From a bacterium (lineage in GTDB: Bacteria; CAYTYR01; UBA6262), in contig JAQTPL010000016.1 of assembly GCA_028712895.1 (NCBI GenBank), forward strand, positions 1 to 37,772: a stretch of DNA of 37,772 nucleotides. Direction: 5' to 3'. The notes beneath the pieces were generated by a model. The model did no database searches, had not been told where the DNA came from, and saw only the letters and a list, made by a program, of their open reading frames with translations. This document shows positions 1 through 35,194 of this stretch, one piece after another. The translations under genes were made by a program, and so were the position numbers. Each line of letters opens with the position of its first letter. Positions within the stretch are counted from its first letter, which is position 1.

Positions 1-579
1 TATGCCCTGCTGGGCATGACTTTCTGGCAATTATTTGCTACCGGTGTGACTTCAGGCGGAAACTCCCTGACCGCGTCTGGGGATATGATCACCAGGATCA
101 ATTTTTCCCGTAAATCATTGGTTTTATCCAGCATCGGCAAGCCGCTCATTTCCTTTTTCATCCAATTGATCCTGATCACTGTGTTATTCGTGTTTTACCG
201 CATTGTTCCCGCTAAAACCGTCCTACTCGCTCCACTAGTATTGATCCCTATTATTTTGCTTACCCTCGGTATTGGTTTTGTGATGGCTCTATTGAGCGCC
301 ATAGTCAAAGATACGGGTAATTTTTTAGCCTTGGCCATGTCCTTGATGATGTATGCCACACCGGTATTATATTCAAAACCCATGAAGGGTCTGCTACTGG
401 AAATCACCCGTTACAATCCCATGTATTACCTGATCTCGGCTGGTCGTGATCTGGCTTTAAAAGGAACCATCATCGAAGTGAACGGATTTATCTTATCGGT
501 AATTGTGTCCATAATATTATTTACCGCCTCCATTATAGGTTTCCACCTGACTGAAACCAGAATTGCCGAGAGGATTTGA
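1..579 (+). CDS. wzm: ABC-2 type polysaccharide export permease (Wzm-like), 5' truncated
   Basis: The reading frame is open from base 1, so the N-terminus lies outside the window; 192 residues are visible. At least four hydrophobic segments can be seen at about residues 48-67, 73-101, 106-125 and 160-182. The pattern NP-x(8)-GRD near residues 139-150 and the short polar C-terminus fit ABC-2 permeases that export O-antigen, capsule or teichoic-type glycans across the inner membrane. The ATPase partner starts one base after the stop codon, so the two are surely co-translated and form one transporter. The family assignment rests on topology and on this neighbour, since sequence conservation among Wzm proteins is low. 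The ATG at 16 is internal, not the start. Confidence 0.85.
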   Translation, partial: YALLGMTFWQLFATGVTSGGNSLTASGDMITRINFSRKSLVLSSIGKPLISFFIQLILITVLFVFYRIVPAKTVLLAPLVLIPIILLTLGIGFVMALLSAIVKDTGNFLALAMSLMMYATPVLYSKPMKGLLLEITRYNPMYYLISAGRDLALKGTIIEVNGFILSVIVSIILFTASIIGFHLTETRIAERI

Positions 580-1840: not shown

Positions 1841-2089
1841 ATGGCTATTAATGTTGAACAAGAAGTGAAGAACATGCTAGCGAAGATCACGGATACCAGT
1901 GTTGATAAGATTACCCTGGAGACAGACCTGGTTAATGACCTGGAAATAGATTCTCTTAAGATAATCGAGATCGCCACGGAAATTGAAAAAACATTCAAAG
2001 TGAGTATTAGTGATGCGGAGATGGTAACTATCAGGAAAGTCAGCGATGCTGTCACCATACTGCAAAAATTATTAACTGAGAAAGCTTAA
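1841..2089 (+). CDS. Acyl carrier protein
   Basis: An 82-residue acidic four-helix protein with the phosphopantetheine attachment motif DSL at residues 37-39 (Ser38). It carries the growing acyl chain as a thioester for the four enzymes encoded immediately downstream. The strong ribosome binding site GGGGGGAG ends five bases before the ATG, among the best in the window, as expected for a protein needed in excess. It is the first gene of a five-gene block (ACP, KR, CLF-like, DH, KS). It is probably a dedicated ACP rather than the housekeeping AcpP, because housekeeping acpP normally sits beside fabF/fabG/fabD in a fatty-acid operon and not among glycan genes. Which holo-ACP synthase modifies it cannot be told. 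Confidence 0.95.
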   Translation: MAINVEQEVKNMLAKITDTSVDKITLETDLVNDLEIDSLKIIEIATEIEKTFKVSISDAEMVTIRKVSDAVTILQKLLTEKA

Positions 2090-2093
2090 GTTT

Positions 2094-2840
2094 ATGGCGC
2101 AACAGGGCAGAACGGCGATGATTAGCGGGGCTACCAGGGGCATAGGCCGAGCCATAGCTATTGAGCTGGGGCGGTCGGGGGTTAACATAAGTTTTAATTA
2201 TTTTAAAAGCAGTGCCGAGGCGGAGACGCTGGAGAAGGAATTAGTAGGTTTAGGCGTACGGGCTAAAGCGTATCAAATTGATATTAAGGATTTTCCAGCG
2301 GTCCAGCTTTGGGTTGAGGAGACAAAAAAGATCTTTGGCGGGTTGGATATCGTTGTTAATAATGCCGGGATAATAAAAGACAAGGCCTTGGCTCTCATGG
2401 CTCCCGAGGACTGGCGAGAAGTGATCGATACGAATTTATACGGCACTATTCATTTATCCCGGGCTGCTATCATTACTATGGTCAAGAAAAAAGCCGGGAA
2501 TATCGTTAATATAAGCTCCGTAAGCGGCATTACGGGAATTGCCCGGCAGACCAATTATGCCGCGTCGAAAGCCGGCATGATCGGGTTCACCAAATCTTTA
2601 GCCATGGAAGTGGCGCCCTACAATGTCAGGGTTAACGCGGTGGCGCCGGGATTTATAGAGACAGAAATGCTTAAAGACCTAAAAGAAGAATATAAGGTCC
2701 GACTGGCCAAGCAAGTTCCTTTGGCGAGGTTTGGTCGGCCAGAAGAAGTAGCCAAAGTAGTTGGATTCCTCATTAGCGACGCCGCTCAATATATCACCGG
2801 GCAAACAATTGTAATTGATGGTGGCTTGGCAATGATCTAA
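2094..2840 (+). CDS. fabG: 3-oxoacyl-ACP reductase, FabG-type short-chain dehydrogenase
   Basis: A 248-residue classical SDR. It has the nucleotide-binding motif GATRGIG at 12-18, the NNAG motif at 89-92, Asn114, and the catalytic Ser142, Tyr155 and Lys159 (YAASK). It should reduce beta-ketoacyl-ACP to 3-hydroxyacyl-ACP, probably with NADPH. The start lies five bases after the ACP stop, and the intervening spacer is too short to hold a separate promoter. Context makes it the ketoreductase of the dedicated chain-building module. The residue pattern alone cannot tell a true FabG from a related SDR acting on other substrates, but the neighbours favour ACP-bound substrates. Confidence 0.92.
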   Translation: MAQQGRTAMISGATRGIGRAIAIELGRSGVNISFNYFKSSAEAETLEKELVGLGVRAKAYQIDIKDFPAVQLWVEETKKIFGGLDIVVNNAGIIKDKALALMAPEDWREVIDTNLYGTIHLSRAAIITMVKKKAGNIVNISSVSGITGIARQTNYAASKAGMIGFTKSLAMEVAPYNVRVNAVAPGFIETEMLKDLKEEYKVRLAKQVPLARFGRPEEVAKVVGFLISDAAQYITGQTIVIDGGLAMI

Positions 2841-2854
2841 GAAGGGAAGCGGGC

Positions 2855-4057
2855 ATGAACAAAAAAAGAGTCGTGATTACCGGAATTGGAGTAATCTCAC
2901 CGATCGGTATCGGGAAAGACGCCTATTGGGAGAGTCTTAACAGAGGAAAGCAGGGATTTAAAAACATCACCCTCTTTGATACTGGTAATTTTACCACTAA
3001 GATAGGCGGAGAAATAACCGAGTTCGCGGCGGAAAATTTTATCGGCAGTAAAGGACTGGTAGATCTGGACAGGGCCACCCGGTTGCTCTTATCAGCCACC
3101 AAACTGGCCCTGGATGACAGCCAACTCGATATCACTGGCATCAATGACCCCGTTACCGGTATTTCCGTTGGAACGACATTCGGCAGTCTACACAGTCTTT
3201 CCGTATTCGACCGACAATCGATTGAAGAAGGCCCCAATTTTGTTAATCCCTCCCGTTTCCCCAATTTAGTAATTAATTCTCCTGCTAGCAGGAATGCCAT
3301 CCGCTACGCCGTTAAGGGCCCCAATGCGACTGTATCCACGGGATTTTGCTCCGGACTGGACGCGATCGATTACGCGGTTAATACCATAAACTCCGGCCGG
3401 GCCCGGAGAATGATCGTAGGTGCCGTAGAGGAGATGTGTATCGAGACTTTCCTGGGATTTCACAAGCTGCGCTATCTCTCCGGTCTTGATGGTAAAGAAC
3501 CCATATCCTGTCCTTTTGACCAAAGAAGAAACGGCATTATATATTCCGAAGGCGCGTCAGTAATTATCATAGAAGAACTGGATACTGCCCGGGAACGCCG
3601 GGCTCCTATCTATGCCGAAATATTGGGGATGGGATCAAATTTTGGTAAGGGCGGCGGCGAAGCTATGACATTAGCTTTAAAGGATGCTACCCTGGGCATG
3701 CAAAACATCGACTGTATATTTGCCAGCGCTAATTCTACGAAATTTCTTGATAGCACCGAAACGAAAGCCATTAAAGAAGTGTTCAATTCCCGCGCTAAAA
3801 ACATTCCTGTTTCAGCGATAAAATCTATGCTGGGCGAGACCTTGAGCGCGGCCGGGGGATTGGCGACAGTAGCCGCCTTGGGGAGCCTGCAGAAAGATTT
3901 TATCCCGCCTACCATTAATTTCCTGGAAGGTGACCCCGAAGACGATCTGGATTATGTGCCGAATAAGGCGCGAGGAAGCAAAGTTAATAGCGCGATGATA
4001 AACGCCTTCAGTCCGAGCGGGGCAAGCACGGTCCTGATCGTGGGCAGATACCAATAG
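2855..4057 (+). CDS. Degenerate beta-ketoacyl synthase homologue, chain-length-factor-like (KS-beta)
   Basis: A 400-residue thiolase-fold protein of FabF length, colinear with the intact ketosynthase encoded at 4501. A gapless comparison of the two active-site regions puts Phe164 where the partner has catalytic Cys163; a Cys follows one position later (GFCSGLDA). The first catalytic His of the partner (H294 in AHGTGT) is Ser291 here, and the second (H329 in MLGHT) is Glu328. The conserved Lys323 is kept. Loss of all three catalytic residues beside an intact paralogue is the hallmark of chain-length factors in type II polyketide and aryl-polyene systems, where the KS-beta subunit pairs with KS-alpha and shapes the product pocket. 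I infer a heterodimer with the downstream KS. An alternative is a decarboxylase-like or simply inactive KS. Confidence 0.85.
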   Translation: MNKKRVVITGIGVISPIGIGKDAYWESLNRGKQGFKNITLFDTGNFTTKIGGEITEFAAENFIGSKGLVDLDRATRLLLSATKLALDDSQLDITGINDPVTGISVGTTFGSLHSLSVFDRQSIEEGPNFVNPSRFPNLVINSPASRNAIRYAVKGPNATVSTGFCSGLDAIDYAVNTINSGRARRMIVGAVEEMCIETFLGFHKLRYLSGLDGKEPISCPFDQRRNGIIYSEGASVIIIEELDTARERRAPIYAEILGMGSNFGKGGGEAMTLALKDATLGMQNIDCIFASANSTKFLDSTETKAIKEVFNSRAKNIPVSAIKSMLGETLSAAGGLATVAALGSLQKDFIPPTINFLEGDPEDDLDYVPNKARGSKVNSAMINAFSPSGASTVLIVGRYQ

Positions 4058-4066
4058 GAGATAAAA

Positions 4067-4501
4067 ATGATCAATTTAGATATCAATCAAATAATGAGCT
4101 GCATACCCCAAAGATACCCTTTTCTTATGGTCGACAGGGTGATTGATCTGGACCCCGGGAAGCGGGTGGTAGCGGAGAAGAATGTTTCTATAAATGAGCA
4201 TTTCTTCCAGGGCCATTTTCCTGCTGATCCTATTATGCCCGGTGTGCTGATCGTTGAGGCGATGGCGCAAGCATCAATGTTCCTTTTTTATGTTCCGGAT
4301 CAAACAGAGCAAAAATTAGATTTTTACCTGGCTATTGTTAAGGATATCAGATTTTTAAGATCGGTTCTTCCCGGCGACCAACTACAGATACTGGTAGAAG
4401 CAGTCAGGGTCACTAAAGATAACGCGGTGGTAAAGGTCCTCGCCACGGTCAAAGACGGTAAAGTCTCTGAAGGCGAACTGGTTTTTGTCAGGAGGAAGTA
4501 A
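4067..4501 (+). CDS. fabZ: 3-hydroxyacyl-ACP dehydratase, FabZ-type hot-dog fold
   Basis: A 144-residue single hot-dog protein with the FabZ signature. Catalytic His50 lies in GHFP (49-52) and catalytic Glu64 in LIVEAMAQ, with the central helix intact. It should remove water from 3-hydroxyacyl-ACP to give trans-2-enoyl-ACP. The stop codon overlaps the next ATG by one base (TAATG), so translation is coupled to the ketosynthase. AGGAG at 4056-4060 supports the start. No enoyl reductase follows. If the chain is not reduced by a housekeeping FabI/FabK, double bonds would accumulate. Confidence 0.93.
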
Positions 4502-5709
4502 TGAGTCAACGAATAGTCGTTACCGGTTTAGGAGTGGTGAGCTCCATCGGGGTCGGCCGCGAAATATTTTGGGATAATTTAATAAAAGGGAAATCAGGGA
4601 TATCCCCAATCACAGCTTTTGACACCACCGGGCACAAAACACACGTGGGAGGGGAAGTAAAGGACTTCAATCCCGCTGATTTCATCTCTAAAAAAGGGAT
4701 GAAAGGCACCGGCAGGGCGTCACAGTTGGCAATAGCCGCGACCCGTTTAGCTTTGGAAGACGCGAAATTAGACTTGTCGGCCGTTAGCCAGCTAAGGACC
4801 TGTGTTTCCCTGGGAACGACTATGGGAGAAATACAATCATTTGAAAAGGCCAATCACGCTTGGATAAAAGAAGGTTATGATCAAATCGATATATCGGCGT
4901 TATTTGAATCGCCCGTATACCGGATACCCACCAATGTAGCACTGGAGTTTAATCTGAAAGGCAGGAACAGGATATTCACTACAGCCTGCGCTGCGGGCAA
5001 TTATGGCATAGGGTATGGTTTTGACTTGCTTAGATCCGGTGAGGTAGATCTGGTAATTGCGGGAGGTTCAGAGCCGTTCTCCTGGATCATATTCACAGGT
5101 TTTAATAAGTTAGGCGCAACTGCCCCTGAAAAATGCCAGCCGTTCGATCAGAATCGCCAAGGGATGATCCCAGGAGAAGGCGCGGGTATATTGATACTTG
5201 AGACACTGGAAAGCGCTCTCCGTAGGAATGCGCAGGTGTACGCGGAGATATTAGGTTATGGCCTAAGCTGCGATGCGCATCATATGACTAACCCCCAGGT
5301 AGAAGGGGTCGCTGAATGTATGTCGAATGCGTTGCGTGAAGCAGCCATTAATCCCGAAGACGTGGATTATATCAGCGCGCATGGCACCGGGACGAAACAT
5401 AATGATCGTACCGAATGTGCGGCTATCAAAAAAGTCATTGGCGACCCCAAGATCGCTATAAGCTCAATTAAATCAATGCTCGGCCATACTATGGGGGCAG
5501 CCTCTGCCCTGGAAGCAATTACCTGTTGCCTCGCGGTGCAAAACGATATAATACCGCCAACAATTAATTATGAAACTCCTGACCTCGAATGTGATATAGA
5601 TTGTGTCCCTAATGTTGCAAGAAAACAACGTGTGGGGATAGCCTTAAATAATGGCTTTGCCTTCGGCGGTAATAATTCATGCTTAGTTGTAAAAAAGTAT
5701 AGTGCATAA
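4501..5709 (+). CDS. fabF: Beta-ketoacyl-ACP synthase, FabF-type, catalytically intact (KS-alpha)
   Basis: A 402-residue condensing enzyme with a complete Cys-His-His triad: Cys163 in TTACAAG, His294 in AHGTGT, and His329 in MLGHT with the conserved Lys324. It should perform decarboxylative Claisen condensation of malonyl-ACP with an acyl chain. The PGEGAG segment at 224-229 is also typical of the family. It is translationally coupled to the dehydratase. Together with the residue-deficient paralogue two genes upstream it makes a KS-alpha/KS-beta pair. No malonyl-CoA:ACP transacylase lies in the window, so malonyl-ACP probably comes from primary metabolism. Confidence 0.94.
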
Positions 5710-6896: not shown

Positions 6897-7601
6897 ATGG
6901 TAGCTAATAATTTATTAAAATACATAAAAGATATAGAGGTATTGACAAAAAAAATAGGCTTAAGAAGAGTAATGCAGAGATTACTATATGTCTCGCATGA
7001 AGAAATATTACTGGTTAAGGACTTTACGGAAGTGGAAAATATATCCTCAGCCCGTGGATTAAAGGTTTCTTTGATTAATAGAGCAAGTCTTCAGAGGATA
7101 GCATTATTCCGCAAGAAAGAAGGACTTGGAGGAGAAGACCCATTACTTGCTTTAACAGCTTATTTGGATAATGGATTCTATGGCTATTCAGCGGAAATAA
7201 ACGGAGAGTTTATTGGCTATATATGGTGGGGGGATAGTAAAACCAATTTTGATTTTGATCGTCAAGGATATGGTTTTTACACCCACCAAGTTAAAATGAC
7301 CCCTACGGATACATTTGGGTTTGATTTATTTGTCTCCTCAAAACATAGAAATGCGAGAATCGCGCTGGAATTCCTGTCTCAGGCGTTTTTTTTAGCTAAG
7401 AAACTTGGGTATCAAAGAAATTATGGCTATGTTCATAATGAAAACAAGCCGGCCCGGTGGATATATTCTATTGTGGGCTTCAAGGAGATCAGGAGGATAC
7501 GGGTACGCAGATTGTTTGTCTACTTCCTGTTTAAGGATAAGAGCTATTTCAAAGATATTTACGGTAAAGAATGGCTACTTAAAACGGGTAAATCTGAATG
7601 A
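6897..7601 (+). CDS. GNAT-fold acyltransferase-like protein
   Basis: A 234-residue protein whose C-terminal two thirds has the look of a GNAT fold: a beta-rich core with GEFIGYIWWG (about 103-112), a helix with RIALEFLSQAFFLAKKLG, and the terminal motif N-KPARWIYSIVGFKEI. The N-terminal 60 residues are basic and helical. GNAT enzymes usually use acetyl-CoA, but the fold also includes acyl-ACP-dependent members (LuxI-type synthases, FeeM, and the exosortase-associated acyltransferases). Because an ACP and chain-building enzymes lie just upstream and an aminotransferase immediately before it, N-acylation of an amino sugar is a reasonable guess. The specific donor is unknown. It overlaps the next gene by ATGA. 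Base composition is visibly more AT-rich than the preceding genes. Confidence 0.7.
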   Translation: MVANNLLKYIKDIEVLTKKIGLRRVMQRLLYVSHEEILLVKDFTEVENISSARGLKVSLINRASLQRIALFRKKEGLGGEDPLLALTAYLDNGFYGYSAEINGEFIGYIWWGDSKTNFDFDRQGYGFYTHQVKMTPTDTFGFDLFVSSKHRNARIALEFLSQAFFLAKKLGYQRNYGYVHNENKPARWIYSIVGFKEIRRIRVRRLFVYFLFKDKSYFKDIYGKEWLLKTGKSE

Positions 7602-8623
7602 AAATCAAAATTAATAAAGTTAAAAGGGCGTCTTCCAAGGAGTGGGATCAAATTTGGGCGAATTGTCTATATGCTACCTATTTTCATTCCAGGGAATGGG
7701 CCGAAATATGGAATGTCTATAAAAAGGGGAGCTATTATCCCGTCCCTAAATTAATTTCATTCTCCGATGGTAGGAAGGCCATAATCCCTCTTTCCTATCA
7801 TGGGAAGCACTGTAAGGGATTGATCAAGGATTATATTTCTTCCCCGGTTTGGACTTATGGCGGCTGGATAAGCGAAGACAATCTTGGTAATGAGCATGCT
7901 TTATTATTGTCCAATTATATGCTTAATAAATGCGGGAACCTTTACTGGAGGGTAAATCCGTATGACCCAAACCTAGTCAAGACCGAAGTAGAACCTTTAA
8001 TGGATTTTACCCATGTGCTCGATTTATCATTAGGCTCCGGGAGAATAATCAAAGGCTTTTCTAGAGGTAATATTAGCTCGCTGCATAAGGCGCAAAGACA
8101 TGGAGTAACTGTTAGAATAGCTTCAACAATTGGCGATTGGCAGGAATATTTTACGATCTATGAAGATTCCCTTTCACGCTGGGGAGAAAAAGCTTCTTCC
8201 AGGTATGGCTGGGAATTATTTAATGAAATATTTAAAAGAAATTCCCCTGATGTTAAACTTTGGCTCGCTGTTTATCAGGATAAAATAATTTCAGGGGCAT
8301 TATGTTTTTATTCAAAGAGGCATGTAGTGTATTGGCATGGGGCTACATTAGCTAGCTATTTTGATTATCGGCCGGCAAATCTGTTAATGCATGAGATAAT
8401 AATGGATTCATGCTCCCAAGGATATTCATGGTTTGATTTCAATCCTAGTGGCGGACATAAGGGGGTAATCGCTTTTAAAGAAAGTTTTGGTACAAGATGC
8501 TTGAATTGCCCCGTATATGAAATAGAGTCTGGAGCTTTCAGGAAATACATCAGGGTGGATGAATTAATTGGCCGGATACAGTATAAGATGAAAAAACGAA
8601 TGGTCCCGAGGAAAGATATTTAA
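7598..8623 (+). CDS. FemAB-like (BioF2-type acyltransferase fold) protein
   Basis: A 341-residue protein resembling the FemAB/Acetyltransf_6 group associated with PEP-CTERM/exosortase loci. Recognisable parts are the N-terminal AEIWNVYKKGSYYPV region, a helix of the type SSLHKAQRHGVTVRIA (about 157-172), LWLAVYQDKIISGALCF (about 225-241), and the closing FNPSGGHKGVIAFKESFG (about 280-297). FemAB proteins transfer aminoacyl groups from tRNA to peptidoglycan precursors. The exosortase-linked subgroup has no established substrate, and presumably transfers an acyl or aminoacyl group to a glycan. It is coupled to the GNAT gene by a four-base overlap, so the two may act in sequence. Confidence 0.8.
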   Translation: MKIKINKVKRASSKEWDQIWANCLYATYFHSREWAEIWNVYKKGSYYPVPKLISFSDGRKAIIPLSYHGKHCKGLIKDYISSPVWTYGGWISEDNLGNEHALLLSNYMLNKCGNLYWRVNPYDPNLVKTEVEPLMDFTHVLDLSLGSGRIIKGFSRGNISSLHKAQRHGVTVRIASTIGDWQEYFTIYEDSLSRWGEKASSRYGWELFNEIFKRNSPDVKLWLAVYQDKIISGALCFYSKRHVVYWHGATLASYFDYRPANLLMHEIIMDSCSQGYSWFDFNPSGGHKGVIAFKESFGTRCLNCPVYEIESGAFRKYIRVDELIGRIQYKMKKRMVPRKDI

Positions 8624-12011: not shown

Positions 12012-13913
12012 TTGGACGCATTAGTTAGTGTCGTAATACCTGCCTATAATCGGGCAAATAGGATCATCAATGCCTTGAAAAGCGTCCAGGGCCAAACCTA
12101 TGCGAACTGGGAGATAGTTGTTGTAGATGACGGGTCCACGGATGAAACCGTTAAGATCGTGACTGATTACGCAGGCCGGGAAAAAAGGATACGCCTGATC
12201 CGGCACGAAAGAAACCGTGGCGCGCAGGCAGCCAGGAACACTGGCATAAAGGCCGCTCAGGGAGAATGGGTCGCTTTCCTGGACTCTGACGATGAGTGGC
12301 TGCCGGCGAGCTTGGCCTTGCGCATGGCAGTTGCCCGGCGCGATAACGTAAAAGTTGTTCATTCCAATGCCTATATCCAGCATGAGGGCAAACCACGGGA
12401 GATATATTACAGTCCCGCCTGGAGCGGGAAAATCTACCGGAAATTACTGGTTAAAGACGGACCGACCTTCCCGTCTCTTTTATTAAAAAAGGAGACTTTA
12501 GAGAAGATCGGCTATCTGGACGAAAAAATCAAAGCCTTCCAGGAATGGGATACAAGCATTAGGCTGGCAAAATATTTTAATTTCGGATTTGAATCTGAAC
12601 CGACGTTTATATATGATTATCGGACAGAAAATGCCATCTCTAGAGATAATTTACGCGGAGCTATTGGATATGAGCAAAATGTGACCAAGCACTTTATGGA
12701 AATTGTTGCCTTCGCGGGATTTGAGGCCGTGTCCTACCATTATGGGGTTGCGGCGCGCTGGTATAGGAATGGGAACGATTTTGAGAACGCGAGACGTTGC
12801 TCAATTTTAGCAAGAGTGTTTAAGCTTTTCAGTTTCACTATGGTTTTAGAGAAGATAAGATACGTTGCTAGTAGAATAAAGGCAATGGTAATAAGGAATG
12901 TCATAAATAGATTACATACTAACACTATTACAGTGCATGAGTTGCCTGGCGCTATAAAGTCGAGCTTTATAACCAGAGAAGGTGTTATTTACGCGGGCAT
13001 GGGAGAATCAGTAGTAAGATCATTAGATAATGGACTAACGTGGAGCAGCCCACTTAAGTCATGGACTGGCGCGTATTCGATATATGCGGTACATGTTGCC
13101 AAGACAGGCTATATTTTTGCTTCACCTAAGGGGCCAGGGGTTTCTAATAGCGAAAAAGGGCTTTGGCGTAGTGTTGATGGTGGCAACACATGGGACAGGG
13201 TCATAGATCTGTCATATGGTGATAATACTATCTGTATCTGGCCTTTAGCTGAAGATAATGAGGGAAGGATATTTGCTGGTACCTACCTGGACGGGTCAGA
13301 AAATTACCTTGGTACTGGCAATATATATAGAAGTGTTGATTCCGGGATAACATGGCAAAAGGTATATGAAGATAATCGGAAACGAATACATATCCATAAT
13401 ATCCAAATTGACGAGAGAAGTGGGATAATATACGCCTGTTACGGAGATAGCGAGCATGGCATAATTAGATCAATAAATCATGGAGAAAGTTGGGAGAAGA
13501 TATTACCGGATTTGCCGCAAATGGTTGGAATATGTGTAACATCGCTCTATAGGTTCCTTGGCACTGATGGTAATGGGGTAAAGGGAAAATTATTTCGAAC
13601 AAAAGATGATATAAATGCCGAATTGGTATTTGATACTCATTTGCCAATAGATAATTACTGGCTGATATCTGATAAAGTGACCGGACGTATTTACGCGGGC
13701 TTTGTTGATGACGGGTCCTCCCGCAGTTCCAAAGCGGCAGTTTATGAATCAAGGGACGAAGGATTACACTGGAAGAGAGTTTATGCTCTCGATATAAAAA
13801 AAGAATGGGATGGATTCCATTGCGCTAGCAATATCATGGATGGCCGGTTTCTTTGTTCGGTTAATTATGATGGAGATACTAGAAATGGACAGATATTTAC
13901 TTTAGGAGAATAA
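12012..13913 (+). CDS. GT2 glycosyltransferase fused to a five-Asp-box beta-propeller-like domain
   Basis: A 633-residue fusion. Residues 5-230 are a GT-A/GT2 glycosyltransferase: VSVVIPAYNRA, VVVDDGSTD (37-45) and the metal site FLDSDDEW (89-96). After a basic, partly hydrophobic helical bridge (about 265-300), residues 305-633 carry five Asp-box (BNR) repeats: SLDNGLTW 337-344, SVDGGNTW 387-394, SVDSGITW 441-448, SINHGESW 487-494 (Asp to Asn) and SRDEGLHW 580-587. Such boxes decorate the blades of sialidase- or photosystem-assembly-type beta-propellers, usually extracytoplasmic. A single reading frame spans both parts without a stop. The propeller may bind glycan or position the enzyme. The bridge is not a clear transmembrane helix. 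From about 12780 the base composition becomes more AT-rich, hinting that the two parts have separate origins. Confidence 0.88.
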   Translation: MDALVSVVIPAYNRANRIINALKSVQGQTYANWEIVVVDDGSTDETVKIVTDYAGREKRIRLIRHERNRGAQAARNTGIKAAQGEWVAFLDSDDEWLPASLALRMAVARRDNVKVVHSNAYIQHEGKPREIYYSPAWSGKIYRKLLVKDGPTFPSLLLKKETLEKIGYLDEKIKAFQEWDTSIRLAKYFNFGFESEPTFIYDYRTENAISRDNLRGAIGYEQNVTKHFMEIVAFAGFEAVSYHYGVAARWYRNGNDFENARRCSILARVFKLFSFTMVLEKIRYVASRIKAMVIRNVINRLHTNTITVHELPGAIKSSFITREGVIYAGMGESVVRSLDNGLTWSSPLKSWTGAYSIYAVHVAKTGYIFASPKGPGVSNSEKGLWRSVDGGNTWDRVIDLSYGDNTICIWPLAEDNEGRIFAGTYLDGSENYLGTGNIYRSVDSGITWQKVYEDNRKRIHIHNIQIDERSGIIYACYGDSEHGIIRSINHGESWEKILPDLPQMVGICVTSLYRFLGTDGNGVKGKLFRTKDDINAELVFDTHLPIDNYWLISDKVTGRIYAGFVDDGSSRSSKAAVYESRDEGLHWKRVYALDIKKEWDGFHCASNIMDGRFLCSVNYDGDTRNGQIFTLGE

Positions 13914-13917
13914 ACCC

Positions 13918-16206
13918 ATGGTAAAACGTTTGCTTATTGAATTAAAACAAAAATTAAAAGTTCCGATGACGGAAAAAATGTACAAATTTCTGATGCGCGA
14001 AGCCAGCGAAGTGCCTGGCCGGCAACTTTTCGGCGTTGAGGAATTAAAGTTAGTTACTGAGGCCTTAGTGTCACAGAACCTGTTTGGCGTGGACGGCAAG
14101 ATGGTGACGAATTTCGAGAAGGAGTTCGCCATCGCTTATGACGTTCCTTATGCCGTTGCTTCAACCTCCGGCACCGCTGCTATCCATACTGCTTTAGGCG
14201 CTTTGGACCTGAATCCGGGTGATGAAGTGATTACGGCGCCTATTACCGATATGGGAACGATCATACCGATCTTGTACCAGAATGCCGTCCCAGTCTTTGC
14301 CGATATAGATGAAACCTATAATATGGACCCGACTGATGTGGAGAAGAAGATAACCTCCCGGACTAAAGCTATCCTCATAGTCCACCTATTCGCCAATCCC
14401 TGTGATATGGATAAGATGATGGAGATCGCCAAGAGGCATAATATCCCGCTAATCGAAGATTGTTCCCAGGCGCATATGACTGAATATAAAGGCAAATATG
14501 TGGGGACAATAGGCGATATTGGCTGTTTCAGCTTTCAGCAGTCCAAGCATATGACCACTGGTGATGGCGGCATGACCATTACCTCCAACAGGGCGTATGC
14601 TGAGAGGATGAAGCTTTTTGTGGATAAGAATTATGCGCGCAAAGGGTGGGGCGCCAGGGCTTATATATCATTAGCGCCGAATTACCGCATGAATGAATTG
14701 ACCGCTGCAGTCGGCCGGGCCCAGTTGAAAAAAGTGAAGAAAGTAATTAATAGAAGACACGAATTAGGGGAACACCTGACCAAACTGATTTCCGGTATCC
14801 CGGAAATAAAGACTGCGCCTATCACCGAGGGTGCTAGTCATGGTTACTGGCTGTATCCTTTAACCCTAAAAGGACTGGATACCAATGCTTTTGCTGAGGA
14901 GATGAAAAAAGCGGGAGTGTGGGTGTCGGCCGGATACACGGTCAAGCCTATATATCTCTGTACCGAAACCCTGACCAACAGGAAAACTTACGGCACGTCA
15001 GGGTGCCCTTTTACTTGTAAATACACTGATAAGAATTATGAATATAAAGAGGGTCTTTGCCCCAAAGCAGAAGAAGCTTTGAAACATTTGATCGGCCTCC
15101 CGTTTGACGAGAGCTGGAGCATGGCCAGGATAGAACGGGCAGCCCAGGCCGTCACTGCTACTGTGCAAAAATTAAAAGGAGAAAGTAAAGCAGCTACTGC
15201 TGAAACAAAACCTGCCAATGTCCCCGTGAAAGCAAAAGCAGTTGACTCTAAGACCATTAAGATAGGCGTTATTGGATGCGGCCAGATGGGCGAATGGCAC
15301 TTCAGCGCGTATCGCAATAATCCTAATGTACAAATGACCGCGTTCGTGGATACGGACATCAGCAAAACCGAGCCTTTTGCCAAAAAAATGGGCGGCAAGT
15401 CCTATTCATCGGTGAAAGAAATGCTGAAGAATGAGAAATTGGATGGTGTTAGCATATGCACCATTCCTGCAACGCATAAAGATATAGTCCTGGACCTATT
15501 GAATGCTGGAGTAAATGTTCTATGCGAAAAACCTCTGGCCATATCCGCTGCCCAGGCAGAGGATATGACCAGGAAAGCTGATGAAAAGAAACTACTCTTA
15601 TATACTGCGTATAAATTCAGGTTCTTTGAAGAAGTTTTAAAAGCTAAAGAACTTATAGACAAAGAACAGCTTGGCAATATCCTGAGTTTTCGCTTGATGC
15701 TGGGCGGCGCCCAGAATATGTCCGGCACCTGGTATACTGACAAAGCCCTCTCCGGCGGCGGCGTAATCATTGATACTGCTTCTCATGCCCTGGATCTGGT
15801 AAATTACCTGTTCGGGGAAGTAGAGAGCGTCAAAACCAGACTGAATAAACAGCAGGAGATAGCTGTTGAAGATACGGCGAACATGGAATTGGTTCTGAAA
15901 AAGGGCGGACACGGGACCATTGATATCAGCTGGTCCTTACCGGTGCCGACACAGAATTACCTGGAGATATTCGGCACGGACGGCACGGCATTACTTGATT
16001 TCAAGGGCATCACCTATAAATTTAAAACCTGGGATGAGTGGAAGCGGCTGGATAACCAGAGAGACTCTAAGCAGGCTTTTGCCAGACAGATAGATAATTT
16101 TGTAAATGCCATAGCGGGAAACCAAAGCAAGACGATCGGCAATGAAGATGGATTAAAAGCACAACGTTTGATAGAAGAAGCTTATGAATCAATAGGAGGG
16201 AAATAA
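13918..16206 (+). CDS. Fused sugar aminotransferase (DegT/DnrJ) and Gfo/Idh/MocA oxidoreductase
   Basis: A 762-residue bifunctional protein. Residues about 35-415 are a DegT-family aminotransferase with PLP Lys210 (FSFQQSKHMTTGDGG), Asp181 (IEDCSQAH) and a Cys-bearing loop (Cys363, Cys367, Cys381 in CPKAEEAL) seen in the AHBA synthase/kanosamine-type subgroup. An Ala/Lys/Thr/Pro linker covers about 421-445. Residues 447-762 are an NAD-dependent oxidoreductase with Rossmann GVIGCGQMG (450-458) and CEKPLA (536-541). Separate oxidoreductase and aminotransferase pairs (WbpB/WbpE, RifL/RifK) oxidise C3 of a sugar and then aminate it. Fusion could channel an unstable 3-keto intermediate. The product is likely a 3-amino sugar, but this is inference. 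RBS AGGAGAA precedes the ATG, and it is followed closely by the toroid gene. Confidence 0.92.
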   Translation: MVKRLLIELKQKLKVPMTEKMYKFLMREASEVPGRQLFGVEELKLVTEALVSQNLFGVDGKMVTNFEKEFAIAYDVPYAVASTSGTAAIHTALGALDLNPGDEVITAPITDMGTIIPILYQNAVPVFADIDETYNMDPTDVEKKITSRTKAILIVHLFANPCDMDKMMEIAKRHNIPLIEDCSQAHMTEYKGKYVGTIGDIGCFSFQQSKHMTTGDGGMTITSNRAYAERMKLFVDKNYARKGWGARAYISLAPNYRMNELTAAVGRAQLKKVKKVINRRHELGEHLTKLISGIPEIKTAPITEGASHGYWLYPLTLKGLDTNAFAEEMKKAGVWVSAGYTVKPIYLCTETLTNRKTYGTSGCPFTCKYTDKNYEYKEGLCPKAEEALKHLIGLPFDESWSMARIERAAQAVTATVQKLKGESKAATAETKPANVPVKAKAVDSKTIKIGVIGCGQMGEWHFSAYRNNPNVQMTAFVDTDISKTEPFAKKMGGKSYSSVKEMLKNEKLDGVSICTIPATHKDIVLDLLNAGVNVLCEKPLAISAAQAEDMTRKADEKKLLLYTAYKFRFFEEVLKAKELIDKEQLGNILSFRLMLGGAQNMSGTWYTDKALSGGGVIIDTASHALDLVNYLFGEVESVKTRLNKQQEIAVEDTANMELVLKKGGHGTIDISWSLPVPTQNYLEIFGTDGTALLDFKGITYKFKTWDEWKRLDNQRDSKQAFARQIDNFVNAIAGNQSKTIGNEDGLKAQRLIEEAYESIGGK

Positions 16207-16208
16207 GG

Positions 16209-17189
16209 ATGAAATTCCTAGAGAAGTTAGGTTTTGCAAAAGAAGAATTACTACCTGATTTTGCGGAGAACGGTACGGTAAAGAATTGCATAAAATGGGT
16301 AAAAGGCTATAAGATCAAACCCGGATTGGTAATTCAGCACCGCAGTTCTAAAGCTTTGCCGCTGACCCAGGAAACTACTGGGTATATGATCAAGACCATG
16401 CGGTTATATGAACAAACAGGATTAGCCAAGAAGATGATGATGTGGGAAGTATCCAACCAGCGACCGGATGGTGCGTTCATCGCGGTGGATATGATACCTT
16501 ATACTTTTGATACAGCGCAGGTCATCCGCGGCTACTTGTCTTTGATCGATGAGATGCCTGAGTTGATGGGTAATCTCAAGCGGGCCTGTGATTATGTAGC
16601 CAGCAAGATCGCGCCCAACGGAGAAGTATTGCATGATTCCTATGAGACCTGGAAATTCCCCGATGGCAGTATGCTCTCCGAATACGGCAACCTGTATTGC
16701 CTACCGCCGTTATTACAGGCTGGCAAGAAATTGAAAGAGCCAAAATACGTGGAAGCAGCCAGGCGCAGCATGGATTACTATCGTAAATTCCCGGATCTGG
16801 TGGAATTTAAACCGAATATGTCCATGATCTCGCATTATTTGGGTTATATGATGGAAGCGCTTATGGAAATGGGTGAAGTGGAACTGGCAAAGAAGGGCCT
16901 GGCCCAGGCAGAAGCGATACAGAAAGCGGACGGATCTATCCCCGCGTATCCGGGCGCGAATTGGGTTTGTTCGACCGGCTTGGCGCAATTGTCGATCGCC
17001 TGGTACATGTTGGGGCATAACGCTCCGGCGGATAAAGCCATGGCGTACCTGGAAACCATTCAGAACAAGAGCGGCGGTTTTTACGGGAGTTACGGCCAAG
17101 GGGCGCAGTATTTTCCTGATAAGGAAATAAGCTGGGCGGTTAAATTCTTCCTAGACGCGCATTATCTCCGGACCCAAAAAGGCAAATAG
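16209..17189 (+). CDS. Alpha/alpha-toroid protein (terpenoid-cyclase/prenyltransferase-like fold), function unknown
   Basis: A 326-residue soluble protein made of paired helices joined by turns rich in DG/GG: RPDGAF (85-90), APNGEV, ADGSIPAYP and SGGFYGS. This periodic pattern, along with YTFDTAQVIRGYLSL (99-113), is typical of alpha/alpha6 toroids found in squalene-cyclase-like proteins, lyases, C5-epimerases and unsaturated glucuronyl hydrolases. No DxDD cyclase motif is present, so a terpene cyclase is unlikely. It starts two bases after the aminotransferase-oxidoreductase stop with a strong AGGAGGG site, so it probably acts in the same step or on the same sugar. I do not assign an activity. 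Confidence 0.7.
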   Translation: MKFLEKLGFAKEELLPDFAENGTVKNCIKWVKGYKIKPGLVIQHRSSKALPLTQETTGYMIKTMRLYEQTGLAKKMMMWEVSNQRPDGAFIAVDMIPYTFDTAQVIRGYLSLIDEMPELMGNLKRACDYVASKIAPNGEVLHDSYETWKFPDGSMLSEYGNLYCLPPLLQAGKKLKEPKYVEAARRSMDYYRKFPDLVEFKPNMSMISHYLGYMMEALMEMGEVELAKKGLAQAEAIQKADGSIPAYPGANWVCSTGLAQLSIAWYMLGHNAPADKAMAYLETIQNKSGGFYGSYGQGAQYFPDKEISWAVKFFLDAHYLRTQKGK

Positions 17190-32644: not shown

Positions 32645-33745
32645 ATGATGGTAATATTTTATTGGACAGCAGTAATATTAATATTTTATACATATTTTGG
32701 CTATCCGCTGTTAATTGCTTTAATGTCTGTTCTTTACGGGAAAATAGTAGCTAAACAGTGGATTTATCCGCGTATTTCCTTGATCATTGCCGCACATAAT
32801 GAAGAAAAAGACATAGCTAAGAAGCTTAGAGATTCATTAAATTTGGACTATCCCCAGGATAAATATGAAATTGTCGTGGTATCTGACGGATCTACAGATA
32901 ATACAAATGACATAGTAAGAAACTTTCAAGATTCTGGTATAAGATTGTTAGCTTTACCTGAACGGAAAGGCAAAACATCAGCGCAGAACGAAGCGGTAAA
33001 AAGCGCTAAAGGGGATATCCTGATATTCTCAGACGCTACTACGGTCTTTCAAAAAGACACCATTAAGCAAATGGTAAGTAATTTTGCAGACAACAATGTA
33101 GGTGGAGTGGGGGCCGAGTTGATATATGTTAACAAAAATAAGACTGCGACTGGCGAAGGAACTGGCCTTTACTGGAAATATGAAAAGTTTTTAAGAAAAA
33201 AAGAGAGTGAAGTTTCATCTCTTATTGGTGTAAGCGGCTGTGCTTATGCGATACGCAAGAGCCTGTATGAAGAGATAGATACTTCATTGATCAGCGATTT
33301 TGTCGCTGCCCAGATGATATACAGTAAAGGAAAAAGAGTGGTATTTGAGTCTGAGGCTATTGTATATGAAGAGACTAACAGTAAGATCAAGGATGAATTT
33401 AAAATGCGGGTGCGGGTAGCGACCAGGTCGCTCTATGGATTATGGTACATGAGAAAACTGCTCAATCCTTTTAAATACGGCATGTATGCAGTGCAGCTAA
33501 TATCACATAAATTATTAAGATATTTAATGCCTCTGTTTTTAGTTTTTTTATTTTTAACTAATATAGTGCTTTTAGTTAAAGGGTTTGGTTATCGGGTATT
33601 TTTATTGGTGCAGATAGTATTCTATTTAAGCGCGTTAATTCAGGGGGTTACTAAATATTTCTGTACAATGCAAATAGCTCTGTTAATGGCCTTGGTTAAT
33701 TTCCTGCACGGGGAAAAGAATGTACTATGGAAGCCTCAAAGATAG
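32645..33745 (+). CDS. Membrane-anchored glycosyltransferase family 2 protein
   Basis: A 366-residue protein with an N-terminal membrane helix (about 3-30), a GT2 catalytic domain (about 45-275) and two or three C-terminal helices (about 290-345). Motifs are ISLIIAAHNEEKDI, IVVVSDGSTDNT, the metal site IFSDATTVF, and the base region ISDFVAAQMIYSKG. The QxxRW-type position reads RVRVATRSLYGLWYM. This topology is that of processive or lipid-linked GT2 enzymes such as the ICA or NAG-polymer synthases and exosortase-locus sugar transferases. The start may be either of two adjacent ATG codons (32645 or 32648), both preceded by AGGGAG. Confidence 0.9.
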   Translation: MMVIFYWTAVILIFYTYFGYPLLIALMSVLYGKIVAKQWIYPRISLIIAAHNEEKDIAKKLRDSLNLDYPQDKYEIVVVSDGSTDNTNDIVRNFQDSGIRLLALPERKGKTSAQNEAVKSAKGDILIFSDATTVFQKDTIKQMVSNFADNNVGGVGAELIYVNKNKTATGEGTGLYWKYEKFLRKKESEVSSLIGVSGCAYAIRKSLYEEIDTSLISDFVAAQMIYSKGKRVVFESEAIVYEETNSKIKDEFKMRVRVATRSLYGLWYMRKLLNPFKYGMYAVQLISHKLLRYLMPLFLVFLFLTNIVLLVKGFGYRVFLLVQIVFYLSALIQGVTKYFCTMQIALLMALVNFLHGEKNVLWKPQR

Positions 33746-33752
33746 AGGGATT

Positions 33753-34586
33753 ATGAAAAAGGAACTTGGAAAACTTGGGTTAGCGGCTTTGCTGGTTGGC
33801 GTTATTTATTACCCAACCGGGATATGGCTGGTGGAGAGATATGTCGCCGCCGATACCTATTATTCACATGGTTTTCTGGTACCGCTGGTCAGTGGATATT
33901 TTATTTGGCTGGCTGTTAGAAAGAACGACAGTGCTTCTTTGATTACCCATAGCCAAGGGAATTTATGGGGGTTAGGTATAATCCTGGTAGCTTTAGGCAT
34001 ACATATGTTAAGCATGCTGATGGAAGTGTATTTTGTCAGCGGCTATTCCTTATTTATCCTAGTATTCGGAGTGACCATCTTCCTGTATGGCTGGGATTTT
34101 ACTAAAAAGATATTATTTCCTTTGAGTTTCCTGTTTTTTATGTTCCCGTTGCCTTTGGTAGCCATAAATGCCGTCAGCCTTCCGCTGAAAAATATTGCTA
34201 CCAAAGCCGCAGTCCTGGTCATGAAATACTTTATGCACTTGCCGGTCAGGAACGAGGGCTTTGAAATTATTTTCCCCAAGGTCAGCCTGGTAGTGGATAA
34301 TCCATGCAGTGGATTGCGTTCTTTGATATCCATGCTGGCGCTGGGCAGTATTTTCGCTTACCTGCTGAAAGATAAAGTTTATAAACGAATCAGTCTGATC
34401 TTATTGGCCATACCTGTAGCTTTAGGAGCCAACAGCCTGCGCAATATTATTCTTTCTACCGGCGTTTTTATTTACGGAAAACAAATTCTAGATACCTTTT
34501 TTCATGGGTTTGTCGGATATGTTATATTCCTGCTGGAATTCTGGTTGCTGTGGTATGTCTGGGGGAAGATGAAATGCCAAAAATAA
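33753..34586 (+). CDS. xrt: Exosortase (EpsH/Xrt family)
   Basis: A 277-residue polytopic membrane protease-transpeptidase. I chose the ATG at 33753 (AGAGGG just upstream) over an in-frame ATG at 33720 that lies inside the previous gene. The catalytic Cys185 is in NPCSGLRS, Arg230 in GANSLRN and His251 in FFHGF, the Cys-Arg-His triad of the exosortase/archaeosortase family. About eight hydrophobic segments surround them. Exosortases cleave C-terminal PEP-CTERM-like signals of exported proteins and connect sorting with surface glycan assembly. No protein with a PEP-CTERM tail is in the window. The exact exosortase subtype cannot be told by eye. Confidence 0.95.
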   Translation: MKKELGKLGLAALLVGVIYYPTGIWLVERYVAADTYYSHGFLVPLVSGYFIWLAVRKNDSASLITHSQGNLWGLGIILVALGIHMLSMLMEVYFVSGYSLFILVFGVTIFLYGWDFTKKILFPLSFLFFMFPLPLVAINAVSLPLKNIATKAAVLVMKYFMHLPVRNEGFEIIFPKVSLVVDNPCSGLRSLISMLALGSIFAYLLKDKVYKRISLILLAIPVALGANSLRNIILSTGVFIYGKQILDTFFHGFVGYVIFLLEFWLLWYVWGKMKCQK

Positions 34587-35194
34587 AAAAAGCTTATCCT
34601 GTCTTGATCGGCGTTTTGCTGGTTTTCGCTATTTTTAGTCTGGTCATTAGCACTTTTCACAAAAAAATGTCAGGCAATGTCAACCTGGGCCAGATACCTT
34701 ACAATATTGGCTCTTGGCGAGGGATGGCGATCCCGGCCGAGGAACAGGCAAGCGCCATATTGGACACAGATTCTGTGCTCATGAGAGAATATAGAAAAGG
34801 TACAGATAAAATTTGGCTGGCCATAGTGTTTTATAAGGATAGCCGTGTGGCCATGCATTTGCCGGAAAGCTGTTATGCAGGGGTTGGTTCACAAATAGTG
34901 GACGAAGGCGTAGAGACAATTGATGCGGATCTGGTGGTTAATAAAATTATTCTCAAAGGGAGTAAACGCAACCAGATAGTTTTATATTATTTTGATGCCT
35001 GCGGGTATAAAACTCCGCATTATCAGTTTTTTCGCTGGCATATGATACTTAACCAGTTAAAGCATAAGCCCAATAGCGGCGCTTTAATAAGGTTTTCTAC
35101 TAATTACAATGGTAAGGGGGTAAGAACAAACTTAGAGAAGCTTAAAGGATTTATAAAAGAGATTAATCCTATTTTAGAGAAAATATTTATTTAA
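34574..35194 (+). CDS. epsI: EpsI family exosortase-associated protein
   Basis: A 206-residue protein from the ATG at 34574, which follows GGGGG with an eight-base spacer; an in-frame ATG at 34550 is weaker. A single N-terminal membrane anchor (about 8-26) precedes a periplasmic domain with the EpsI signature HLPESC (95-100) and YAGVG. EpsI is found either next to an exosortase or fused to its C-terminus, and here it overlaps the exosortase gene by 13 bases. Its biochemical function is not established; a role in processing or glycan assembly with the exosortase is inferred. It ends the tight operon: the next gene starts 84 bases later. Confidence 0.9.
   Translation: MPKIKKAYPVLIGVLLVFAIFSLVISTFHKKMSGNVNLGQIPYNIGSWRGMAIPAEEQASAILDTDSVLMREYRKGTDKIWLAIVFYKDSRVAMHLPESCYAGVGSQIVDEGVETIDADLVVNKIILKGSKRNQIVLYYFDACGYKTPHYQFFRWHMILNQLKHKPNSGALIRFSTNYNGKGVRTNLEKLKGFIKEINPILEKIFI

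What the first reader, a model, noticed from the sequence alone, without database searches (positions are those of the whole stretch)
1841..5709. Type II polyketide/fatty-acid-like module embedded in a glycan-exosortase locus
ACP, KR, CLF-like, DH and KS form a coherent five-gene set without an enoyl reductase, transacylase or thioesterase. Aryl-polyene and related systems use exactly KS-CLF-KR-DH-ACP logic to build conjugated polyenes. No ammonia lyase or adenylation enzyme for an aryl starter is present, so the starter would be different. Placed between a Wzm/Wzt transporter and an aminotransferase/GNAT/FemAB trio, it suggests a glycan carrying an unsaturated or hydroxylated acyl group, or a lipid anchor made specifically for it. 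I know of ACPs and acyl-CoA ligases in XrtA loci, but not a full KS-CLF module, so this is the strongest candidate for an undescribed system.
Basis: partly seen in the sequence, partly recalled or inferred. Interest (0 to 1): 0.82.

Follow-up and report, generated by a model that had tools for sequence, protein, structure and literature searches.

The report
Polyene-type acyl module inside glycan locus
A five-gene fatty-acid-like assembly line, related to the uncharacterised one that anammox bacteria carry in their suspected ladderane-lipid genes, sits inside a sugar-polymer export locus here and nowhere else we looked, and probably makes an unsaturated acyl group to decorate that sugar.

Summary
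ACP, KR, an inactive ketosynthase partner (CLF-like), FabZ-type DH and an active KS lie at 1841-5709 in one tight same-strand operon between wzm-wzt and an aminotransferase/GNAT/FemAB trio. It is not housekeeping: a complete FASII operon lies on another contig, a second FabZ is encoded elsewhere, and congeners lack the module.

It is not aryl-polyene machinery. The KS and CLF belong to a KS-CLF class found in nearly all anammox bacteria retrieved (Kuste3605/3606 of the suspected ladderane genes; 9s5h chains in the PDB), a quarter of sampled Omnitrophota and a tenth of Nitrospirota. Nearest relatives are two Omnitrophota modules, which match four of the five genes best.

In 156 homologous loci the usual neighbours are a CrtI-like oxidoreductase and a histidine kinase, never a glycan cluster. 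Here both are missing and the module stands in a Wzm/Wzt polysaccharide locus; a related locus in a same-class genome lacks it.

Best reading: KS-CLF/KR/DH build a short polyunsaturated (or hydroxylated) acyl-ACP that an adjacent acyltransferase puts on an amino sugar. Enzyme set and locus are shown; product and acceptor are inferred. A new variant of a known but functionally unresolved kind.

The parts
1..579 (+). Wzm-type ABC permease, 5' end cut by the contig edge
   Evidence: 39% identical to the 282-aa permease before Wzt in L277
563..1813 (+). Wzt ATPase with C-terminal Wzt_C carbohydrate-binding domain
   Evidence: Pfam Wzt_C 81.7 bits, ABC_tran; 47% to Wzt of L277
1841..2089 (+). dedicated acyl carrier protein (DSL motif)
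   Evidence: PP-binding 46.5 bits; best match 49% to the ACP of Omnitrophota module L189
2094..2840 (+). 3-oxoacyl-ACP ketoreductase (FabG-type SDR)
   Evidence: 68% to the KR of module L155
2855..4057 (+). CLF-like inactive ketosynthase partner (Cys to Phe, His to Ser, Lys kept, His to Glu)
   Evidence: 47% to PDB 9s5h_C; groups with L189 and L171 at 99 support; AF2 model pLDDT 87, KS fold
4067..4501 (+). 3-hydroxyacyl-ACP dehydratase, FabZ type
   Evidence: TIGR01750 160.4 bits, cut-off 155.15; 69% to the DH of L189
4501..5709 (+). active ketosynthase (Cys-His-Lys-His)
   Evidence: PDB 9s5h_B 535 bits, ishigamide KS 6kxd 359 bits; 70% to the KS of L189
5721..6869 (+). DegT/ArnB/PseC-like sugar 4-aminotransferase
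   Evidence: PF01041 437 bits; ArnB 1mdo 301 bits
6897..7601 (+). GNAT acyltransferase, candidate for acyl transfer to the amino sugar
   Evidence: PF00583 25.9 bits; no relative in 368 Omnitrophota, the 4 other genomes of its phylum, plasmids or PDB
7598..8623 (+). FemAB/GNAT-family transferase, second candidate
   Evidence: PF13480 52.8 bits, FemAB 35.6 bits; TIGR03019 64 bits, cut-off 260
16209..17189 (+). cyclase-like protein, downstream synteny anchor shared with L277
   Evidence: 44% to its counterpart in L277
17195..18079 (+). GT2 glycosyltransferase, downstream synteny anchor shared with L277
   Evidence: 47%
33720..34586 (+). exosortase
   Evidence: TIGR02602 156 bits, cut-off 105.6
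34550..35194 (+). EpsI / DUF3485
   Evidence: PF11984 95.8 bits

Best explanation
The five genes encode a dedicated type II iterative synthase. Malonyl-ACP, made with the host's FabD, is condensed by the KS-CLF heterodimer on the dedicated ACP. KR reduces and the FabZ-type DH dehydrates after each round, and with no dedicated enoyl reductase the double bonds mostly stay. The result is a short polyunsaturated, possibly partly hydroxylated, acyl-ACP whose length is set by the KS-CLF cavity. The neighbouring ArnB/PseC-like enzyme makes an amino sugar, and the GNAT (or the FemAB protein) moves the acyl group from ACP onto it. The acylated sugar enters the glycan exported by Wzm/Wzt. Shown: gene set, active-site pattern, class membership, operon, absence from relatives. 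Inferred: heterodimer, product, acceptor and transfer step.
For: KS keeps Cys-His-Lys-His while the CLF loses Cys and both His and keeps Lys, the same split as in nearly every KS/CLF pair compared. Closest solved structures are 9s5h KS (535 bits) and CLF (351 bits), which are 90-95% identical to Brocadia proteins of the anammox cluster; the next KS is ishigamide Iga11, 359 bits, from a polyene-making KS-CLF (PMC8358021, PMC7949117). CLF, DH, KS and ACP all match the same Omnitrophota module L189 best and L171 second. A separate housekeeping FASII exists. The module is packed in one operon with wzt and the amino-sugar genes, inside a Wzm-Wzt-...-cyclase-GT2 frame that in genome G004 holds a Wzt_C-like protein, methyltransferase and epimerase genes instead.
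Against: No homologous module is in a glycan cluster (0 of 156 loci), so use on a glycan rests on one genome. Relatives often carry a CrtI-like oxidoreductase, missing here; its loss could mean a different product. The KS has Met where ishigamide KS has Asp113, the residue reported to promote release for reduction (PMC8358021). The GNAT is an orphan whose structure could not be predicted. A host enoyl reductase might act on the intermediates; this was not tested.
Confidence: 0.5

Rival explanations
1. The module makes a free or membrane lipid, as its relatives presumably do in anammox bacteria and Omnitrophota, and its place in the glycan locus is incidental to its function.
For: Homologues occur with CrtI-like, radical SAM, acyl reductase and histidine kinase genes and never in glycan clusters.
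Against: The lipid-tailoring neighbours (CrtI, third KS, reductases, radical SAM) are all missing here. The genes are packed within one operon with wzt and sugar genes and lie where a related locus has other glycan genes.
Confidence: 0.2
2. The module makes a very short hydroxyacyl or enoyl group (one or two rounds, for example 3-hydroxybutyryl) for an amino sugar, as in anthrose or acylated viosamine (comparison from general knowledge), not a polyene.
For: ArnB/PseC-like aminotransferase plus GNAT directly downstream; short N-acyl groups are common on 4-amino sugars (general knowledge).
Against: Such systems as I know them do not need a KS-CLF heterodimer, whose role is iterative extension; DH would be superfluous for a hydroxyacyl group.
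Confidence: 0.2
3. The module makes a lipid anchor or primer for the glycan instead of a side group.
For: Wzm/Wzt and exosortase systems handle lipid-linked glycans (general knowledge).
Against: No gene linking an acyl chain to a sugar phosphate or glycerol was recognised near the module; the adjacent genes are amino-sugar and N-acyltransferase-like.
Confidence: 0.06
4. It is a spare housekeeping fatty-acid set or an assembly artefact.
For: Single draft genome, 75 contigs; module GC 47% against 42% for the rest of the window.
Against: The housekeeping FASII contig C42 has GC 46%, so the module's composition is not foreign to this genome. Inactive CLF partner; tight operon junctions on both sides; specific class membership.
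Confidence: 0.04

Closest known systems
Anammox FASII cluster kuste3603-3608 (ACP, FabZ, FabF, non-canonical FabF, phytoene desaturase-like, radical SAM; PMC2649909, PMC4790861) and PDB 9s5h/9s5i
   Same: Same KS and CLF family (KS about 60%, CLF 43-47% identity), same active-site loss in the CLF, adjacent FabZ and ACP
   Different: KR is inside the cluster here; no CrtI-like oxidoreductase or cobalamin radical SAM; set in a glycan locus; different gene order
Omnitrophota modules L189 (G030) and L171 (G005)
   Same: Closest relatives of CLF, DH, KS and ACP (64/69/70/49% and 57/59/67/49%); L189 has the same KR-CLF-DH-KS order
   Different: They have a third KS after the ACP, and L189 also CrtI and a histidine kinase; no glycan genes; ACP lies after the KS
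Ishigamide highly reducing type II PKS (Iga11-Iga12, PDB 6kxd/6kxf)
   Same: KS is the second-best solved match; KS with CLF, KR and DH logic giving a conjugated polyene (PMC8358021, PMC7949117)
   Different: Asp113 of Iga11 is Met108 here
Aryl polyene (APE) clusters
   Same: KS-CLF plus KR, DH, ACP and no enoyl reductase
   Different: ApeC is a half-size single thiolase domain (PMC8358021); APE has ApeR and aryl-starter enzymes; DH here is FabZ type
NodE-NodF-NodA of rhizobia (from general knowledge)
   Same: Dedicated KS and ACP supply a polyunsaturated acyl chain to an amino sugar
   Different: No NodA-type transferase recognised in the window; no CLF in Nod systems as far as I know

Membership tests
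Anammox/Omnitrophota KS-CLF class (Kuste3605/3606 type) | KS with intact Cys-His-Lys-His next to a full-length partner with Cys lost, both His lost, Lys kept, second His to Glu | tested here: met
   window CLF F-S-K-E, KS C-H-K-H; Kuste3606 V-N-K-E per PMC2649909
Anammox/Omnitrophota KS-CLF class (Kuste3605/3606 type) | CLF groups with the class in a tree | tested here: met
   window CLF inside Omnitrophota CLFs, 99 support with L189 and L171
Anammox/Omnitrophota KS-CLF class (Kuste3605/3606 type) | FabZ and ACP genes adjacent | tested here: met
Anammox ladderane cluster | Adjacent CrtI-like oxidoreductase and cobalamin radical SAM genes | tested here: not met
   No such gene recognised in the window; the only PF01593 protein found in the genome is 23% to the class CrtI proteins
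Anammox ladderane cluster | Makes ladderane lipids | not testable with these tools
   Needs lipid chemistry
Aryl polyene cluster | Half-size ApeC-type CLF | tested here: not met
   Window CLF 400 aa with both KS domains; ApeC size from PMC8358021
Aryl polyene cluster | ApeI-type dehydratase and second KS (ApeR) | tested here: not met
   ApeI-like 20.2 bits under cut-off 28.5, FabZ equivalog met; only three KS-type proteins in the genome
Ishigamide-type highly reducing type II PKS | Asp at position 113 of the KS | tested here: not met
   Met108 at that position
Ishigamide-type highly reducing type II PKS | Conjugated polyene product | not testable with these tools
   Needs in vitro assay
Housekeeping FASII | Only KS/FabZ/ACP set in the genome | tested here: not met
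Exosortase A (XrtA) system | XrtA-specific exosortase model above cut-off | tested here: not met
   TIGR03109 149 bits, cut-off 208; general exosortase TIGR02602 passes

The most novel reading that the evidence does not exclude
A ladderane-type KS-CLF module has been recruited to make a conjugated polyene acyl cap on an amino sugar of a Wzm/Wzt-exported polysaccharide, and the Wzt C-terminal domain recognises that acylated residue as the export signal. In the related locus L277 the same slot holds methyltransferases and a stand-alone Wzt_C-like protein, the usual kind of cap machinery.
Probability: 0.12. Interest if true: 0.8.

Novelty: new variant of a known kind. Interest (0 to 1): 0.55.

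Why it matters
The KS-CLF class is carried by the anammox bacteria retrieved here and by about a quarter of sampled Omnitrophota, yet its product is unknown and its genes failed to give ladderanes in E. coli (PMC4790861). This locus is a stripped-down natural version: five enzymes without the CrtI and radical SAM partners, beside a candidate acceptor pathway. Reconstituting it could show what the core KS-CLF/KR/DH set makes, which bears directly on the open question of ladderane precursors. It would also be the first case I know of a KS-CLF system decorating a bacterial surface glycan.

Tried and rejected
Aryl polyene, housekeeping FASII and ishigamide-type membership were tested and not met (membership table). 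A single-protein scan of viral contigs with the CLF found no relative. Plasmid search with the CLF gave mostly FabF-like hits at 36-38%. The GNAT has no relative in plasmids, PDB, 368 Omnitrophota or the other genomes of its phylum; its AF2 model had pLDDT 42, so no fold search was run. FemAB of the window and the FemAB-like protein beside modules L017/L019/L048 are not measurably related, so adjacency of the two kinds may be coincidence. The CLF fold search listed FabF, ishigamide and actinorhodin KS structures but not 9s5h, which seems to be absent from that structure library; no paper on 9s5h was found. Paper searches for exosortase with ketosynthase, acyl carrier protein or aryl polyene found nothing on this combination. 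Enoyl reductase elsewhere in the genome was not searched.
Full report
What is there. The window is a whole 37.8-kb contig (C23) of a 1.93-Mb draft genome, 94% complete, from a phylum with only five genomes held. Its first 5.7 kb read wzm (cut by the contig edge), wzt, ACP, KR, CLF-like, DH, KS, all on the + strand with gaps of at most 27 bp, followed without a break by an aminotransferase, a GNAT and a FemAB-family gene. Most start codons have a purine-rich stretch upstream. The rest of the contig is a polysaccharide locus: about a dozen glycosyltransferases, two polysaccharide deacetylases, a Wzx-type flippase, a Wzy_C ligase/polymerase, an XrtA-type amidotransferase, an exosortase and EpsI.

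The two ketosynthase-type proteins are a KS and a CLF-like partner. Aligned with the genome's own FabF, the downstream gene of the pair (KS) keeps Cys, His, Lys, His, whereas the upstream one has Phe, Ser, Lys, Glu. Loss of Cys and both His with Lys kept is the rule in all but a few CLFs of the 41 loci compared (two Nitrospirota CLFs have a Cys at the first position but lack both His, and two CLFs have Arg for Lys), and the partner KS is intact wherever it is complete. AlphaFold gives the CLF a confident KS fold (pLDDT 87), with the one weak stretch at residues 110-138; the top structural matches are ketosynthases.

It is dedicated, not housekeeping. A canonical rpmF-plsX-fabH-fabD-fabG-acpP-fabF-rnc operon is on contig C42. 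The genome holds just three KS-type proteins: FabF and the two here. A second FabZ domain sits in a 475-aa open frame on C19, most simply an LpxC-FabZ fusion (inference). Three other genomes of the order have a single FabF each and no module, and the fourth relative, of the same class, has no CLF match.

What family it belongs to. The closest solved proteins are chains B and C of PDB 9s5h (KS 535 bits, CLF 351 bits), which are 90-95% identical to Brocadia proteins. The residues of 9s5h_C fit those tabulated for Kuste3606 in the 2009 ladderane study: Val163, Asn298, Lys328, Glu333 (PMC2649909). A scan with a two-CLF alignment returned 49 loci; 41 of them are true CLF loci in Omnitrophota, Nitrospirota, one Rhodocyclaceae MAG and anammox or anammox-like Planctomycetota. 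Sampling whole genomes, 98 of 384 Omnitrophota and 30 of 295 Nitrospirota carry such a CLF. In the CLF tree the window protein sits inside an Omnitrophota group with L189 and L171 at 99% SH-aLRT support. ACP, CLF, DH and KS each match L189 best and L171 second, so these four were probably inherited together; the KR is nearest to KRs of other modules of the class (68% to L155). Clusters flagged by antiSMASH as 'ladderane' have been reported in Omnitrophota MAGs, with function stated as unknown (PMC9902471); whether those are this class was not checked.

What is unusual here is the setting. Among 156 CLF loci with up to 10 kb of flank, a CrtI-like oxidoreductase is present in 84, a 7TM histidine kinase in 70, a cobalamin radical SAM in 33, acyl reductases (male-sterility type 21, AAR-like 24), and a third KS in 21 (domain names). 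Many of these contigs are short, so the counts are lower bounds. No locus had more than one glycosyltransferase and none had GNAT, FemAB or Wzm matches. The detector was checked by leave-one-out on the window's own glycosyltransferases and found 11 of 12. The window lacks the CrtI, histidine kinase, radical SAM, reductase and third KS; the only amine-oxidase-family protein found in the genome is 23% identical to the class CrtI proteins.

A related locus without the module. Genome G004 (same class, another family) has Wzm (39%) and Wzt (47%) followed by a Wzt_C-like protein, two methyltransferase-bearing proteins, the second of them also carrying the cyclase-like domain (44%), a UDP-GlcNAc 2-epimerase and a GT2 (47%), with the shared genes in the same order as in the window. 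In the window the stretch between Wzt and the cyclase-like gene is occupied by the acyl module, aminotransferase, GNAT, FemAB and further sugar genes. That is how variable regions of polysaccharide loci behave, and is the best argument that the acyl module serves the glycan. It is one comparison at moderate identity.

How it most likely works. KS-CLF pairs extend chains iteratively; with KR and DH but no dedicated enoyl reductase the expected product is a polyunsaturated acyl-ACP, as shown for ishigamide and aryl polyenes (PMC7949117, PMC8358021). The starter is probably acetyl or malonyl derived, with the host's FabD supplying malonyl-ACP (inference). The product would be handed from ACP to an amino sugar made by the ArnB/PseC-like enzyme by the GNAT or FemAB protein (inference). 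Weak points: the KS lacks the Asp113 of the ishigamide enzyme (Met108), the GNAT is an orphan, and a host enoyl reductase could saturate the chain.

Verdict. The aryl-polyene comparison holds as chemistry but not as kinship. The biochemical class is known by sequence since 2009 and its KS-CLF now has PDB entries, but no product is established in the papers read. Its use in a glycan export locus appears new, rests on one genome, and is testable with five small proteins.

Noticed in passing
L189:2436-7299 and about 70 other loci: Downstream of the KS-CLF module many Omnitrophota and Nitrospirota have a CrtI-like oxidoreductase followed by a 7TM sensor histidine kinase (best NCBIfam match the XrtA-system kinase PrsK, below cut-off). 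Kinase and lipid genes together suggest the product or its membrane effect is sensed.
   Followed up: partly
L171:12457-13767, L189:5998-7299, L012:5304, L015:3088: A third ketosynthase-type protein with unusual motifs (NNACASGLYAL, PHGVGSGPID, KPYVGHNLG) follows the ACP in many of 21 related modules; it is absent from the window.
   Followed up: no
G005 (L011, L171, L172): One Omnitrophota genome carries three separate KS-CLF modules of this class in different settings.
   Followed up: partly
window 13918-16206: Single 762-aa protein joining a DegT-type sugar aminotransferase to a Gfo/Idh-type sugar dehydrogenase.
   Followed up: no
window 12012-13913: GT2 glycosyltransferase joined to a region with BNR/Vps10-like repeats, an odd pairing.
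   Followed up: no
window 16209-17189 and L277:7013-8485 (- strand): Squalene-cyclase-like protein within two glycan loci; in G004 it is fused to a methyltransferase. Function unclear.
   Followed up: partly
window 35279-37351: Fibronectin/TIG-domain protein directly after exosortase and EpsI, but its C-terminus (KSKDDLGTIIRKKLRH) shows no PEP-CTERM-like sorting signal.
   Followed up: partly
G000:C19:34715-35086: FabZ domain within a 475-aa open frame, probably an LpxC-FabZ fusion, hinting at lipid A synthesis in this organism.
   Followed up: no
L017, L019, L048, L180, L201: A sub-group of Omnitrophota modules has a FemAB-like protein on the opposite strand, an alpha/beta hydrolase and CrtI next to KS; L017 and L019 also have a DegT-type aminotransferase a few kb away.
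   Followed up: partly
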